From: Hydrogenophaga sp. SL48
GTDB lineage: Bacteria > Pseudomonadota > Gammaproteobacteria > Burkholderiales > Burkholderiaceae_C
DNA: 64,000 bases
Assembly (NCBI RefSeq): GCF_021729865.1
Contig: NZ_CP063400.1
Span: 620,001 to 684,000 of the forward strand
Reading direction: 5' to 3'
The position numbers were made by a program, and so were the translations under genes. This document shows, in pieces, positions 60,297 to 64,000 of this stretch. The notes beneath the pieces were generated by a model. The model did not search any database. It worked only from the letters and a program-made list of their open reading frames with translations, and was not told the origin of the DNA. How positions within the stretch are numbered: the first letter of the stretch is position 1; the number at the start of each line of letters is the position of its first letter.

Positions 60297-60805
60297 CACC
60301 CACTCGGCTTCAACTCCAGCGCTGGCAAGCGCTCACCAGCGAACAGCAGCAATCCGTGCTGGCCCTGCACATCCCGCCCGAGCAGATTGAATTCGCCGGG
60401 ACGATGGCGCAGGCGGTCGCGGTGGGCGAGGGCGCCAGCCCCGACGAAGTGGCCGGCCTGGCCGTGCTTCAAGCCGATGTGCCGGTCGGCTTCGTGGTGC
60501 TCTGCCGGGGCTCCCGGCTGCCGGAGTGGGCGCCCACCGGCGCCGTCGCCCTCAGGGCCATGCGCATTGACAGCCGCGAACAGGGCAAAGGCCACGGCAA
60601 ACACGCGCTGGCCCTGGTGGAAACCTGGCTGGGGGAGCACTGGCCGGTTTGCCCGTTGCTCGCGTTGTGTGTGGACGACCAGAACCTGGCTGCTCGGCGC
60701 GCCTACGAAGTGGCGGGGTTCACCGAGTACACCGAGCCCAAGGCTGGGCGCATCGGGCTGGTGCGTTATCTGGCCAAGCCTTTGAAGGTGGCTGCGCGCT
60801 CATAG
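60293..60805 (+). CDS. GNAT-family N-acetyltransferase
   Basis: A 170-residue acetyltransferase. The acetyl-CoA loop is DSREQGKGHGKHALALVETWL (R/Q-x-x-G-x-G/A) and motif B is LCVDDQNLAARRAYEVAGFTEY. The N-terminal part is variable and the substrate unknown. It is translationally coupled to the DUF2267-like gene. Confidence 0.83.
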   Translation: MTPTRLQLQRWQALTSEQQQSVLALHIPPEQIEFAGTMAQAVAVGEGASPDEVAGLAVLQADVPVGFVVLCRGSRLPEWAPTGAVALRAMRIDSREQGKGHGKHALALVETWLGEHWPVCPLLALCVDDQNLAARRAYEVAGFTEYTEPKAGRIGLVRYLAKPLKVAARS

Positions 60806-60843
60806 CACCCGACGGCCGGTTCAACACCACCGGCCGCAGGCGC

Positions 60844-61095
60844 TCAGCTCTCGTCGTCCAGCAGGCGCTGCAGCGCTTCTTCTGTCAGGCCCTGCGCGGC
60901 AGCACTGGAGGCGTTCTGCGCCAGCGAGCCCTACAGGCGGTTCGCGCAGAAGTTGCGCATGGCCTCGTGGTCCTGCGCGCTGACCATCACGCCCACCACG
61001 CGGCCGTGCTTGAGCACCTGGACGGGCCTGTGCTGAACTTGATCAAGCAACTTCCCGAAGTGGGTCTTGGCTTCGGTGGCAGTGCAGGAGCGCAT
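60844..61095 (-). pseudogene. Phd/YefM-like antitoxin interrupted by an in-frame TAG
   Basis: The frame from ATG 61095 encodes MRSCTATEAKTHFGKLLDQV, then VQVLKHGRVVGVMVSAQDHE, a Phd/YefM N-terminal DNA-binding domain. It stops at TAG (60931-60933) after 54 residues. The same frame continues GSLAQNASSAAAQGLTEEAL to a TGA at 60844-60846, giving 83 codons, the normal antitoxin length. A single CAG-to-TAG change explains it. GAGGAGG stands before the ATG, so the 54-residue piece may still be made: DNA-binding half without the toxin-binding half. It is the third gene behind vapB and vapC, 15 bases after vapC, with no partner toxin downstream. Confidence 0.8.
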
Positions 61096-61110
61096 GGTCT
61101 GTTGGCCTCC

Positions 61111-61491
61111 TCAATGAGTGGCCGCGGTGTGCGCCACGCCCAACCGCTCGGCCAGCCCGACCAGCCGCCGGTCCAGCGTCCACAACCGCGCGCCCGGTGT
61201 GATGAGCGCCGACGCCAGCAGGCCCAGATCCACCAAACCGCATCCTTGGCCGTACAAGCGTTCGCGCTCCACAAACGCCATCACCTCGTCCACCGTGGCC
61301 ACCTTGGCCGGTTGCAGCGCCGCCAGATCGGCCAGCGTCTGCACTCGGGCCGGGGGCGTGCCGCAGGCCAGTTCCGCCCGCACCCAGGGGTGGGTCAGCA
61401 CGGCGTCCTGCACCAGCAGGTTGGCCAGCTCTTCGTTGCGGCTGCGAAAGTGGTCCACCCACACCGAGGTGTCCACCAGCACCGCCGTCAT
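61111..61491 (-). CDS. vapC: VapC-type PIN-domain toxin
   Basis: A 126-residue PIN-domain ribonuclease. The acidic active site is [12 protein letters not shown] (first Asp), the Glu in VRAELACG, and the later Asp in [13 protein letters not shown] and LWTLDRR. VapC toxins cleave tRNA or rRNA and are neutralised by VapB. Its start overlaps the vapB stop by four bases, the usual vapBC layout. Confidence 0.93.
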
Positions 61492-61691
61492 TCGGCAGGT
61501 TCCTCGCGCCGACGTGGGATCTCGGCCATTTCGGGCGCGGCCGCACCCAGCGCCGCCAGCCGCTTGGCCGACTGCACCCGCACAAAGGTGCGGAACACCT
61601 CGCGGAACAGGTCGGCCTTGTCCATGGACGGGTCGGCGACTTGCAAGGCCCGCTCGTACAAGGCGTCGTCGATGGTGACGGTGGTTCGCAT
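61488..61691 (-). CDS. vapB: VapB-type antitoxin
   Basis: A 67-residue antitoxin of the ribbon-helix-helix type ([17 protein letters not shown]), with a C-terminal region ([19 protein letters not shown]) that would bind VapC. It is the first gene of the leftward operon vapB-vapC-broken Phd. The palindrome at 61721-61738 is the likely autoregulatory operator, 30 bases before the start. Confidence 0.9.
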
Positions 61692-61720
61692 TGGGGCGCT
61701 CCGGTTTGTAGATTCAAAGA

Positions 61721-61738
61721 CGCATCAGTTTTGATGCG
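61721..61738. promoter_or_regulatory. Candidate VapBC operator
   Basis: CGCATCA-GTTT-TGATGCG, a perfect seven-base inverted repeat in the 142-base space between vapB and the divergent phd gene. Further GCATCA/TGATG half-sites (AAGCATCATA at 61743) follow. Ribbon-helix-helix antitoxins bind such inverted repeats. The location suggests control of vapBC and perhaps of both operons. Confidence 0.65.
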
Positions 61739-61782
61739 ATAAAGCATCATATAGAAGACACATCAAAGCCTCAATGCATGGC

Positions 61783-61811
61783 TTGACCCAGACCAAATAC
61801 GGGCATAAATT
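61783..61811 (+). promoter_or_regulatory. Sigma-70 promoter for the phd/parE pair
   Basis: TTGACC (61783-61788), a spacer of 17 bases and TAAATT (61806-61811) lie 22 bases before the antitoxin start at 61834, whose AAGGAGG ribosome-binding site is also strong. Spacing is optimal; five of six -35 bases and four of six -10 bases match consensus. Confidence 0.65.
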
Positions 61812-61833
61812 CAGTCCACCCCAAGGAGGCGCC

Positions 61834-62109
61834 ATGCAAGCCCGCGAACACATCCGATCCATTTCCTACCTCAAGAGCCACGCCGCCCAGATCTCTGAAG
61901 AGGTGGCCGCCACCGGTGCGCCGGTCATCATCACCCAGAACGGCGAAGCCGCCATGGTGATCGAGGGCGTGCAGCAGTACCAGGACAAGGAAGACCTGAT
62001 CGCCCTGCTCAAGCTGCTGGCCCTGGGTGAAAAAGACCGGCAGGCGGGCCTGGGCCTTTCGGTGGAAGAATCCCGCGCACAACTGGCACAACGGCGCCAG
62101 CAGCGCTGA
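61834..62109 (+). CDS. Phd/YefM-family antitoxin
   Basis: A 91-residue antitoxin starting MQAREHIRSISYLKSHAAQI, with VIITQNGEAAMVIEGVQQYQ (the Phd dimer core) and a helical C-terminal tail that binds the toxin. AAGGAGG lies five bases before the ATG. The toxin gene starts five bases after its stop. It is unlike the truncated Phd-like frame at 60844-61095, so the two belong to different modules. Confidence 0.92.
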   Translation: MQAREHIRSISYLKSHAAQISEEVAATGAPVIITQNGEAAMVIEGVQQYQDKEDLIALLKLLALGEKDRQAGLGLSVEESRAQLAQRRQQR

Positions 62110-62114
62110 ACGCC

Positions 62115-62435
62115 ATGGCCATCGTCATCCTGCCGGACGCGCAGGCCGACCTGCTGGACCTGCAGGACTACATGCTGGAGCGATGGACGCCGGAGCTGTG
62201 GGTGGCCGCCGAACAAGACATCTTTGACCAGCTCGCCCAGGTGGACTCGGGTTTCATCACCGGCCCGGTGATTCCTTTGCTCGCCAGCGTGGGCATGACG
62301 GACTACCGGACCATCCTCAGCTCACACCACCGCATCCTGTACCGCCAGATCGACGGGAATACTTTTGTGTATGCGGTGGCTGGGCAGACGCAGGATTTTC
62401 AGACGCTGTTGCTCAGGCGGTTGTTCAGGCGGTGA
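62115..62435 (+). CDS. RelE/ParE-family toxin
   Basis: A 106-residue toxin. VILPDAQADLLDLQDYMLERW, GMTDYRTILSSHHRILYRQID and FVYAVAGQTQDFQTLLLRRLF match the ParE/RelE fold with its C-terminal strand. Whether it targets mRNA on the ribosome (RelE) or DNA gyrase (ParE) cannot be told from sequence. It is in the same transcript as its antitoxin, five bases downstream. Confidence 0.9.
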   Translation: MAIVILPDAQADLLDLQDYMLERWTPELWVAAEQDIFDQLAQVDSGFITGPVIPLLASVGMTDYRTILSSHHRILYRQIDGNTFVYAVAGQTQDFQTLLLRRLFRR

Positions 62436-62537
62436 GAGTGGGGAAAAGGCAAGACCTCACCTTAATCCGTCTCTGTAGGTTCGAAAGTCTATGCGCATTA
62501 ACATTTCTCGATTGCATCACCTGAGGTTTATGTTCGT

Positions 62538-63074
62538 ATGAATAATTCATTGTTCTTTTCTCGGTCCATTGTTGCTTTTGTTGCGTCTTTTTTCTGTGCT
62601 CATCTGCATGCATCCCCGGTTGATTTGATTGCATTGATGGATGCGTTTTGTATTGGGGCTGATGGTGATGTTAAATCGGCAGAAAAAATGGCAATTGCTT
62701 CGGGTGGGAAGCGGTTGTCCAAAGATATGTTGCATCTCGACCCGGCTGTAGCTAGGGATGGCGGTAGTGGATTCACTGTTGTTCGAGGGAAAAAGAAGTA
62801 TGTCGTTATGATTACAAATAAAGGCGCCTGTTCCATTCTTTCTGTTAGCACGTTGCCGCAGGATCTGAAGCTTCTTCTTGAAAAAACCTACCCTTTGCGT
62901 AAAGTTTTGGATGATGGAAGCGGTCCCCAATTTTTAACTATGTGGAAAGTTCTTCAGCCTTCGATGTATGCTGGATCTGTTATTTCAATGAATGCTGCAA
63001 GATCCGGTTTCGGAGCGGATGGGGCGGTTTCTCTGGGTTATTTATCATCTAAGCTTGTTCAAGCTGAAAAATAG
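62538..63074 (+). CDS. Exported protein of unknown function in AT-rich island
   Basis: A 178-residue protein I do not recognise. Its N-terminus MNNSLFFSRSIVAFVASFFCAHLHA is a Sec signal peptide, probably cut after HA. The mature part has a Cys (AFCIGADG) and a second Cys (NKGACSIL), which could form a disulfide, and mixed beta/alpha sequence (GFTVVRGKKKYVVMITNKG). GC content is about 40-45%, far below the neighbours, with AT-ending codons. It lies 52 bases before the next gene on the same strand, so the two may be co-transcribed. Confidence 0.7.
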   Translation: MNNSLFFSRSIVAFVASFFCAHLHASPVDLIALMDAFCIGADGDVKSAEKMAIASGGKRLSKDMLHLDPAVARDGGSGFTVVRGKKKYVVMITNKGACSILSVSTLPQDLKLLLEKTYPLRKVLDDGSGPQFLTMWKVLQPSMYAGSVISMNAARSGFGADGAVSLGYLSSKLVQAEK

Positions 63075-63126
63075 ATAATTTTTTTGGAGAGTCTTCTTTG
63101 GAAGTACATTTTTATGAAGTGCAGCA

Positions 63127-63792
63127 ATGACCGCTCAAGCAGCTGATTTGATTTTTTTTGAAGGTAAAGAGTACGTTACGTTCGATGAGCCGCTTTCATT
63201 TCTTGAAGGGCTACCGGAGTTTTTGGATTTGAATACTGGAAATATTAAAGGGTATGTTGCATTGTGGGTGGTTGTCGCTAATCGTTTGTTTATCGCTTCG
63301 CTAAATGGTTATGTGCCTGGAAGGACTGATAAGGGGCTTGGACTTGTTTTTTCCAATGTTCAGGCACCTATTTTTGCGAGTTGGTATTCTGGAAGGCTTC
63401 GACTTTTAGGTGGTCAACTACTCAGGCGTAGCGAAATAAATCCAATCTATCAGCATGAGGTTTTACTGGTTGTGAAGAATGGGGAGATCCAGGAGTGTTC
63501 GTTGCTTGATAGAACTGGCGAAGCCGTCTGTCATGAATTCGATCCAATGTTGTCTGTGTCGATTGAGTTGCTTGAAGGATTTTCTCCTGGGGTGATTGAT
63601 TTGGTTCGAAATTTGGGTGTTTCTAGTTTGGGTGATCTTGTTGAGTTTGATGGATTGGAGTTCGCCAAGGCGACGGGGCTGGGTATCGATGCGGTAATTG
63701 ACATAAAGAATGCACTTTCAACTTATGGGCTTTCATTTGGTATGCATTTGCAGGGCTGGCCACCGAAGCAAAGTCCGGTGAGGCCGCTTTGA
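63127..63792 (+). CDS. Protein with unknown N-terminal domain fused to an RNA polymerase alpha C-terminal-like domain
   Basis: A 221-residue, AT-rich-coded protein. Residues 1-130 form an unassigned mixed alpha/beta domain (KGYVALWVVVANRLFIASLNG, ASWYSGRLRLLGGQLL). From residue 137 the sequence follows the linker and C-terminal domain of RNA polymerase alpha: EFDPML (alpha: EFDPIL), then LGDLVEFDGLEF, ATGLGIDAVIDIKNAL and YGLSFGMHLQGWPP (alpha: RGLSLGMRLENWPP). This match is from memory of E. coli alpha. DNA-contact positions differ: alpha R265, N268, K298 and S299 correspond to non-basic or different residues here, so promoter UP-element binding is doubtful. No strong ribosome-binding site precedes the ATG, the first in frame. 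The role is unknown. Confidence 0.75.
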   Translation: MTAQAADLIFFEGKEYVTFDEPLSFLEGLPEFLDLNTGNIKGYVALWVVVANRLFIASLNGYVPGRTDKGLGLVFSNVQAPIFASWYSGRLRLLGGQLLRRSEINPIYQHEVLLVVKNGEIQECSLLDRTGEAVCHEFDPMLSVSIELLEGFSPGVIDLVRNLGVSSLGDLVEFDGLEFAKATGLGIDAVIDIKNALSTYGLSFGMHLQGWPPKQSPVRPL

Positions 63793-63823
63793 TCTGATGT
63801 GCTTCTTATAGCTAATGGAGCAG

Positions 63824-63855
63824 AAAAAAAGGGCTGCCAGTGGCAGCCCTTCTTG
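63824..63855. terminator. Bidirectional terminator at the end of the AT-rich island
   Basis: A-run, then GGGCTGCC, loop AGT, GGCAGCCC and TTCTTGTT. The eight-pair stem with A-run before and T-rich stretch after can end the rightward island transcript and the leftward dehydrogenase gene that converges here. Confidence 0.8.
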
Positions 63856-63873
63856 TTGGGAAGCGCGAAACGA

Positions 63874-64000
63874 TCAATTCGCAAACGCCGCAATCCCGGT
63901 TATCGCCCGGCCCAGAATCAGCGCATGCACATCGTGCGTGCCTTCGTAGGTGTTCACCACCTCCAGGTTCACCAGGTGGCGGGCCACGCCGAACTCGTCG
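63874..64000 (-). CDS. Glutaryl-CoA/acyl-CoA dehydrogenase, C-terminal fragment (cut by window edge)
   Basis: The last 41 residues of a leftward gene that enters from the right edge: [20 protein letters not shown], then [19 protein letters not shown]. This is the C-terminal arm of glutaryl-CoA dehydrogenase (GcdH), including the catalytic-base region [10 protein letters not shown], where the Glu lies. The full enzyme (about 395 residues) decarboxylates glutaryl-CoA to crotonyl-CoA in lysine and aromatic degradation. Assignment to GcdH rather than another acyl-CoA dehydrogenase rests on this tail only. Confidence 0.85.

What the first reader, a model, noticed from the sequence alone, without database searches (positions are those of the whole stretch)
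63127..63792. An RNA polymerase alpha C-terminal domain fused to an unrelated N-terminal domain
Residues 137-213 follow the alpha subunit linker and C-terminal domain almost end to end (EFDPML; LGDLV; GLGIDAVIDIKNAL; GLSFGMHLQGWPP). The N-terminal 130 residues are not alpha NTD. The alpha residues that contact DNA appear changed, while the fold-forming and tail residues are kept, which points to a protein-binding role, such as competing for sigma or activators, rather than UP-element binding. It sits in an AT-rich island beside toxin-antitoxin genes. I know of no characterised system with this architecture. The function is inference.
Basis: partly seen in the sequence, partly recalled or inferred. 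Interest (0 to 1): 0.8.

Follow-up and report, generated by a model that had tools for sequence, protein, structure and literature searches.

The report
RNA-polymerase tail fused to defence-island protein
A rare bacterial gene joins a small protein domain often found among anti-phage defence genes to a copy of the tail of RNA polymerase that has lost most of its DNA-gripping residues, so it probably binds proteins, perhaps as a bait or a regulator, though no function has been shown.

The parts
63127..63792 (+). Fusion gene, 221 aa: N-domain (res 1-130) + RpoA-like aCTD (res 137-214)
   Evidence: ORF; for the aCTD; for the N-domain
63127..63516 (+). N-domain, mostly beta in the model (strands 7-11, 14-18, 43-50, 53-62, 89-100, 107-117, 120-127); member of an uncharacterised family
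63535..63768 (+). aCTD with the end of the linker (EFDP) and the tail (GLSFGMHLQGWPP); R265->G155, N268->D158, N294->G184, K298->D188, S299->A189; K291 kept (K181), E261 kept (E150); E. coli numbering recalled and anchored on the chain ranges
62538..63074 (+). 178-aa protein with a signal peptide (by eye), 52 bp upstream, same strand and same low GC; possible operon partner
   Evidence: GC; weak NMCC_0638 (lipo)protein match E 0.067; matches in 2 of 299 family genomes, own included
61774..62109 (+). Phd/YefM-type antitoxin of the island
   Evidence: Pfam PF02604 5.3e-15
62115..62435 (+). ParE-type toxin of the island
   Evidence: Pfam PF05016 4.6e-6
63826..64000 (-). Start of a partial duplicate of the 3' end of the glutaryl-CoA dehydrogenase (GCDH, named from recall of its sequence) gene; runs on to window-equivalent 64477. 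Septu ptuA/ptuB follow at window-equivalent 64584-66415, outside the window
   Evidence: Septu (PtuA 1.2e-166, PtuB 3.2e-64)
60806..64000 (.). Window part of the 5.7-kb acquired segment (to about window-equivalent 66498) between a GNAT-like gene (by eye) and GCDH
   Evidence: empty site in relative L052

Best explanation
Shown: the gene encodes a two-domain protein made of an N-domain whose relatives are often found in defence islands and a diverged copy of the RNA polymerase aCTD that has lost R265, N294 and K298 and become acidic while keeping the aCTD fold, the linker end, the glutamate at 261 and the GLxFGMxLxxWPP tail. Inferred: the aCTD copy no longer grips UP-element DNA but still presents protein-binding faces of the aCTD, so the protein works by binding something that normally docks on RNA polymerase alpha. 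The most likely use, given the company of its N-domain relatives (Zorya, BREX, WYL) and its own place beside Septu and toxin-antitoxin genes, is in defence: a soluble bait or competitor for a phage- or host-encoded aCTD ligand, with the N-domain passing the signal or holding the protein in its complex, in place of the membrane partner that often follows stand-alone N-domain proteins.
For: aCTD identity. R265, N294 and K298 are replaced in 5 of 5 fusion proteins and kept in the 8 rpoA rows that cover them (a ninth row, L092, was cut before them in that alignment); R265 and N294 enter the minor groove and K291/K298 bind phosphates in the rrnBP1 complex (PMC7822876, passage). K298->D is also present in the distant broken relative L010. 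Net charge -4 to -7 over 80 residues against -1 over 74 in 11 of 11 rpoA CTDs. Both domains are kept together at 60-91% identity between the window protein and four relatives. N-domain loci: 104 neighbours hit 61 PADLOC families at E <= 1e-30, 104 control proteins hit 9. Zorya neighbours, BREX genes. Own island: Septu 0.8 kb downstream, toxin-antitoxin genes upstream, empty site in a relative. aCTD is a known phage target: Rac leads to cleavage of the alpha linker (PMC7552054, passages). A BREX protein, PglW, already carries an aCTD-like domain (PMC12839542, passage).
Against: No ligand is identified and no defence activity is shown. K291 is kept in 5 of 5, so some DNA contact is not excluded. 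The residues at 285, 286, 287 (activator face, recalled) and D259 are changed in 5 of 5, so not all known protein-binding faces survive. The fusion N-domain has lost many residues that stand-alone relatives keep: of 60 columns conserved at 95% or more, 25 are identical in all five fusions, so its role may not be that of the family. The membrane partner was not found by phmmer in 8 of 16 loci. The PADLOC control is small, shares 9 of 12 genomes with the target set, and counts families, several of which can hit one protein. PADLOC itself has no model that matches the fusion.
Confidence: 0.4

Rival explanations
1. A transcription regulator rather than a bait: the aCTD copy docks on sigma region 4 or a host activator and tunes transcription of the island's own genes (178-aa gene, toxin-antitoxin genes, Septu).
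For: E261, part of the sigma-facing 261 determinant (name recalled), and an acidic residue at 258 are kept in 5 of 5. It sits beside genes that would need tight control.
Against: D259 is lost in 5 of 5 and residues 285-287 are changed in 5 of 5. The scan of 62300-63900 gave one promoter-like site against 2.1 expected. The upstream gene encodes an apparently exported protein (by eye), an odd operon partner for a regulator.
Confidence: 0.25
2. A gene with little or no present function: a mosaic caught in a turnover-prone island.
For: Found in 1 of 67 genus genomes; the only other two-domain relative seen in whole genomes is broken by a frame change and an internal loss (L010); the island carries a partial GCDH duplicate.
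Against: The window protein and four relatives at 64-84% identity keep both domains and the tail; the shared K298->D change suggests a retained, altered role.
Confidence: 0.15
3. The CTD still binds nucleic acid, by a changed HhH contact, and serves as a plain DNA-targeting adaptor for the N-domain, as suggested for the aCTD-like module of PglW.
For: K291 equivalent kept in 5 of 5; PglW's aCTD-like domain is placed in a nucleic-acid-binding segment (PMC12839542, passage).
Against: R265, N268, N294 and K298 replaced in 5 of 5, K298 by Asp; net charge -4 to -7. The fusion CTD profile matches RpoA but not L126, a kinase-like protein that looks like PglW by eye.
Confidence: 0.12
4. The 178-aa exported protein and the fusion form a two-gene conflict pair (for example effector-related and immunity-type), and the aCTD is incidental.
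For: Same strand, 52 bp apart, same low GC; both rare; weak match of the 178-aa protein to an (lipo)protein family.
Against: G187 has a 178-aa relative but its best match to the fusion profile is in the range of rpoA; the family match is weak.
Confidence: 0.08

Closest known systems
RNA polymerase alpha subunit C-terminal domain (RpoA aCTD; PF03118)
   Different: No alpha NTD; R265, N268, N294, K298, S299 replaced in the window protein; strongly acidic; not reached by PF03118
BREX type 2 PglW (kinase with an aCTD-like helical domain; PMC12839542, passages)
   Same: An aCTD-like domain used inside a defence protein
   Different: PglW is 1400-1600 aa with nuclease, kinase, wHTH and iSTAND parts (same passages); the fusion is 221 aa and matched none of these
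Small phage proteins annotated 'RNA polymerase, alpha subunit, C-terminal' (BFVD, e.g. A0A6J5QDR9)
   Same: aCTD fold outside RNA polymerase (A0A6J5QDR9: 79 columns, 22% identity)
   Different: 111-240 aa among the rows so named; matches are weak (E 8.5e-3 and up); whether they carry this N-domain was not tested
Stand-alone N-domain family (about 166 aa, 'hypothetical protein', e.g. P0006) with its membrane partner
   Same: N-domain, MTAQ start
   Different: No aCTD in the members looked at; in 8 of 16 loci followed by a membrane protein that does not follow the fusion

Membership tests
RpoA aCTD domain | aCTD fold over the whole domain, above generic HhH | tested here: met
RpoA aCTD domain | Sequence match to RpoA | tested here: met
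   phmmer 4.6e-8, NCBIfam rpoA 5.2e-6 on 136-215
RpoA aCTD domain | Score over the PF03118 curated cut-off | tested here: not met
   No Pfam family at E <= 10; the claim is therefore 'RpoA-derived, divergent', not 'member by Pfam rule'
RpoA aCTD domain | DNA-contact residues R265, N294, K298 (and K291) | tested here: not met
   R265, N294, K298 replaced in 5 of 5; K291 kept in 5 of 5; roles from PMC7822876 and PMC5101437 passages
RNA polymerase alpha subunit | Alpha NTD | tested here: not met
   Residues 1-130 have no alpha NTD match and belong to another family
N-domain family (uncharacterised) | Homology over the whole domain and MTAQ start | tested here: met
   22-31% identity to 96 stand-alone proteins, invariant T2 A3 Q4 P22 L23 G42 Y43 W47 F83 A84 W86 G96 G119; genome matches down to E 4.1e-18
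N-domain family (uncharacterised) | Following membrane partner (present in 8 of 16 loci) | tested here: not met
   The GCDH fragment follows the fusion, no such gene; none in own genome at E <= 1, though the tool warns that an empty answer without a positive genome shows little
Septu | PtuA and PtuB genes | tested here: met
   Neighbours at window-equivalent 64584-66415; that the fusion belongs to Septu is not tested
PglW (BREX type 2) | Kinase and nuclease domains with the aCTD-like domain | tested here: not met
   221 aa, no match to such domains

The most novel reading that the evidence does not exclude
An integrated decoy of RNA polymerase: bacteria copied the polymerase's aCTD, lost its DNA-gripping residues, and fused it to a defence-island signalling domain so that phage factors that dock on or modify aCTD are caught on the bait and trigger a defence response. 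The N-domain and its membrane partner would then be a recurring, undescribed accessory module of Zorya and BREX islands in which the sensor part can be swapped (membrane protein, ankyrin repeats, aCTD).
Probability: 0.15. Interest if true: 0.85.

Novelty: new variant of a known kind. Interest (0 to 1): 0.5.

Why it matters
If the bait reading is right, it would show a bacterium using a part of its own RNA polymerase as a decoy, a strategy not found in the paper searches here. Even if it is wrong, the work links a large uncharacterised protein family (at least 1985 proteins) to anti-phage defence islands in the loci sampled, and gives a natural aCTD without its main DNA contacts that could be used to separate protein-binding from DNA-binding roles of the domain.

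Tried and rejected
Rejected: generic HhH repair domain; chance similarity. Not found: the fusion on plasmids or phages (of 18 and 5 records matched, 17 and 5 match only the CTD, and one plasmid only the N-domain) or in viral contigs (two N-terminal peptide patterns). Derivation of the CTD from PglW is unlikely but weakly tested: the true frame of L126 did not appear at E <= 100.

Not settled: the fold of the N-domain. The first structure job, on five sequences, gave a poor model (mean pLDDT 46) and was not used. The genome-contig scan used only two N-terminal peptides and found nothing, so it says little. Promoter scan: one site against 2.1 expected; no terminator listed, although a hairpin before the GCDH fragment looks like one by eye. 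No dN/dS: DNA of P0002-P0005 was not available. Origin of the CTD: its profile scores 39.5-43.2 bits against three gammaproteobacterial rpoA, 35.1-38.9 against eight from the window's family and 25.3 against one alphaproteobacterial; too little at 80 residues for a claim.

PADLOC comparison: 4 of 16 N-domain loci (L035, L038, L039, L041) gave no neighbours because the script did not select the N-domain ORF; 104 of 107 neighbours were scanned (three partner-like proteins left out), and 104 of 169 control ORFs; 9 of 12 genomes are shared by the two sets; only 25 of the 61 families are listed. In one search a label clash printed the charge of one fusion CTD only; one search gives all five.

Full report
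What is there. The ORF at 63127-63792 (+) encodes 221 residues from an ATG. [quoted passage not shown] coli aCTD, NCBIfam rpoA 5.2e-6, own rpoA 4.3e-7. Pfam reports nothing at E <= 10, so the copy is divergent. A profile of five fusion CTDs finds in the whole own genome only itself and rpoA (4.4e-9) at E <= 10.

Changed residues. In the alignment, with E. coli numbering recalled and anchored on the model-to-chain ranges, R265 becomes G, G, E, D, D (window, P0002-P0005); N268 D, D, D, G, G; N294 G in 5 of 5; K298 D in 5 of 5; S299 A, A, S, V, A. K291 stays K and E261 stays E in 5 of 5. The 8 rpoA rows that cover the domain keep R265, N268, N294, K298 and S299; a ninth, L092, was cut in that alignment. 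In the rrnBP1 complex R265 and N294 enter the minor groove and K291 and K298 bind phosphates (PMC7822876, passage; PMC5101437, passage). Net charge over the CTD is -7, -4, -6, -4, -7 in the five fusions and -1 in 11 of 11 rpoA CTDs. Against a purely protein-binding reading stand K291 and, for the known activator and sigma faces (recalled), the changes at 285-287 and at D259 in 5 of 5.

Rarity. A search of 5.8 billion clustered proteins finds five full-length clusters (64-99% identity; longest contigs 914-3074 bases), one of which, P0001 at 99%, may hold the window's own protein. In whole genomes the full fusion is only in the own genome: 1 of 399 of the family, 1 of 67 of the genus, 1 of 399 of the order, 1 of 398 of the phylum; these sets overlap. 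One more fusion, in another genus (G139, L010), is broken: the N-part runs to about residue 81, and the CTD part (150-214) follows in another frame with the stretch between missing. It was not mended. It shares the Asp at 298.

The N-domain. Aligned relatives led to 1985 proteins at E <= 1e-5, of which 120 were listed; those with a name are 'hypothetical protein', and none listed has a Pfam domain. The listed ones are 142-193 aa, mostly 166. In 16 loci from whole genomes, 8 have the same small membrane protein by phmmer, the query coming from one of them, and three more (L082-L084) a similar 201-204-aa protein at the same place, by eye; L034, L035, L039, L040 and L041 gave none. One locus has the N-domain in a 530-aa open frame with ankyrin repeats (L005).

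Company of the N-domain. L033 lies among BrxC, BrxHI and DrmD genes, and L032 near PglZ. On a Nitrosospira plasmid an unannotated ORF with the N-domain follows genes annotated as ZorA, MotB, EH signature and SNF2. Scanned against PADLOC at E <= 1e-30, 104 neighbours from 12 of the 16 loci hit 61 families, 25 of them listed (WYL 4 proteins; ZorA, ZorB, ZorC and IetA 2 each; BrxL, BrxD, BrxHI, PglZ, DrmD 1 each); 104 control proteins hit 9 families. The control is small, shares 9 of 12 genomes, and several models can hit one protein.

The island of the window. In relative G341 a GNAT-like gene (match to window 60308-60784) ends about 30 bp before the GCDH 3' end (L052). In the own genome 5.7 kb lie between: toxin-antitoxin genes, the 178-aa gene, the fusion, a 650-bp duplicate of the GCDH 3' end, and a Septu system (PtuA 1.2e-166, PtuB 3.2e-64). 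Of the 24 GCDH loci aligned (own included) only L052 shows this GNAT neighbour; many of the others match window stretches near 43.9-45.3 or 56.7-58.2 kb there, and some match nothing, so the site is variable and the empty site rests on one relative. The fusion and the 178-aa gene have GC 0.44 and 0.43 against 0.66 for the window.

How it probably works. The company of the N-domain's relatives and the Septu and toxin-antitoxin neighbours point to conflict with phages or other elements; the CTD has lost its main DNA contacts but kept its fold. I infer a protein-binding aCTD mimic, most likely a bait or competitor for a factor that docks on RNA polymerase alpha. aCTD is a known phage target (Rac, PMC7552054, passages), and PglW of BREX carries an aCTD-like domain (PMC12839542, passage), so both halves of the idea have precedent; for the combination I found none. 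No ligand, trigger or effect is shown. The share given to this reading is 0.4; regulation of the island 0.25; no function 0.15; changed nucleic-acid binding 0.12; a pair with the 178-aa protein 0.08.

How common aCTD outside rpoA is. PF03118 in 200 family genomes gave one match in most; two (G114, G185) had a second. These are a 337-aa open frame with two aCTD-like repeats (L125; the second repeat by eye) and a kinase-like open frame of 1407 aa that looks like PglW by eye (L126). PF03118 missed the window's fusion, so it undercounts such divergent copies.

Print. Searches for aCTD fusions, decoys and aCTD-like proteins listed no paper on this architecture in the held library, judged from titles, abstract starts and the passages read; subscription journals are mostly absent from it.

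Noticed in passing
L032, L033, L036-L038, L079-L084: Two-gene cassette (N-domain protein + small membrane protein), from a large family without annotation, in several loci beside BREX, Zorya or WYL genes; a candidate undescribed defence accessory module.
   Followed up: partly
L042:8585-10416 (window-equivalent 64584-66415): Septu ptuA/ptuB between a partial GCDH duplicate and the intact GCDH gene.
   Followed up: yes
window 60931-61691: Further toxin-antitoxin-like genes on the - strand (a Phd-like antitoxin and a VapBC-like pair, by eye).
   Followed up: no
L010: Broken relative of the fusion in another genus: N-part and CTD part in different frames with an internal loss.
   Followed up: partly
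L125 (G114, same genus): 337-aa open frame with two aCTD-like repeats (the second by eye), PF03118 over cut-off at 25.8 bits: aCTD-like domains outside rpoA occur in the genus in another architecture.
   Followed up: partly
L089 (G187): A 33% relative of the 178-aa upstream protein near genes that look like a Wadjet-type system, by eye.
   Followed up: partly
L005/L034 (G245): N-domain in a 530-aa open frame with ankyrin repeats.
   Followed up: no
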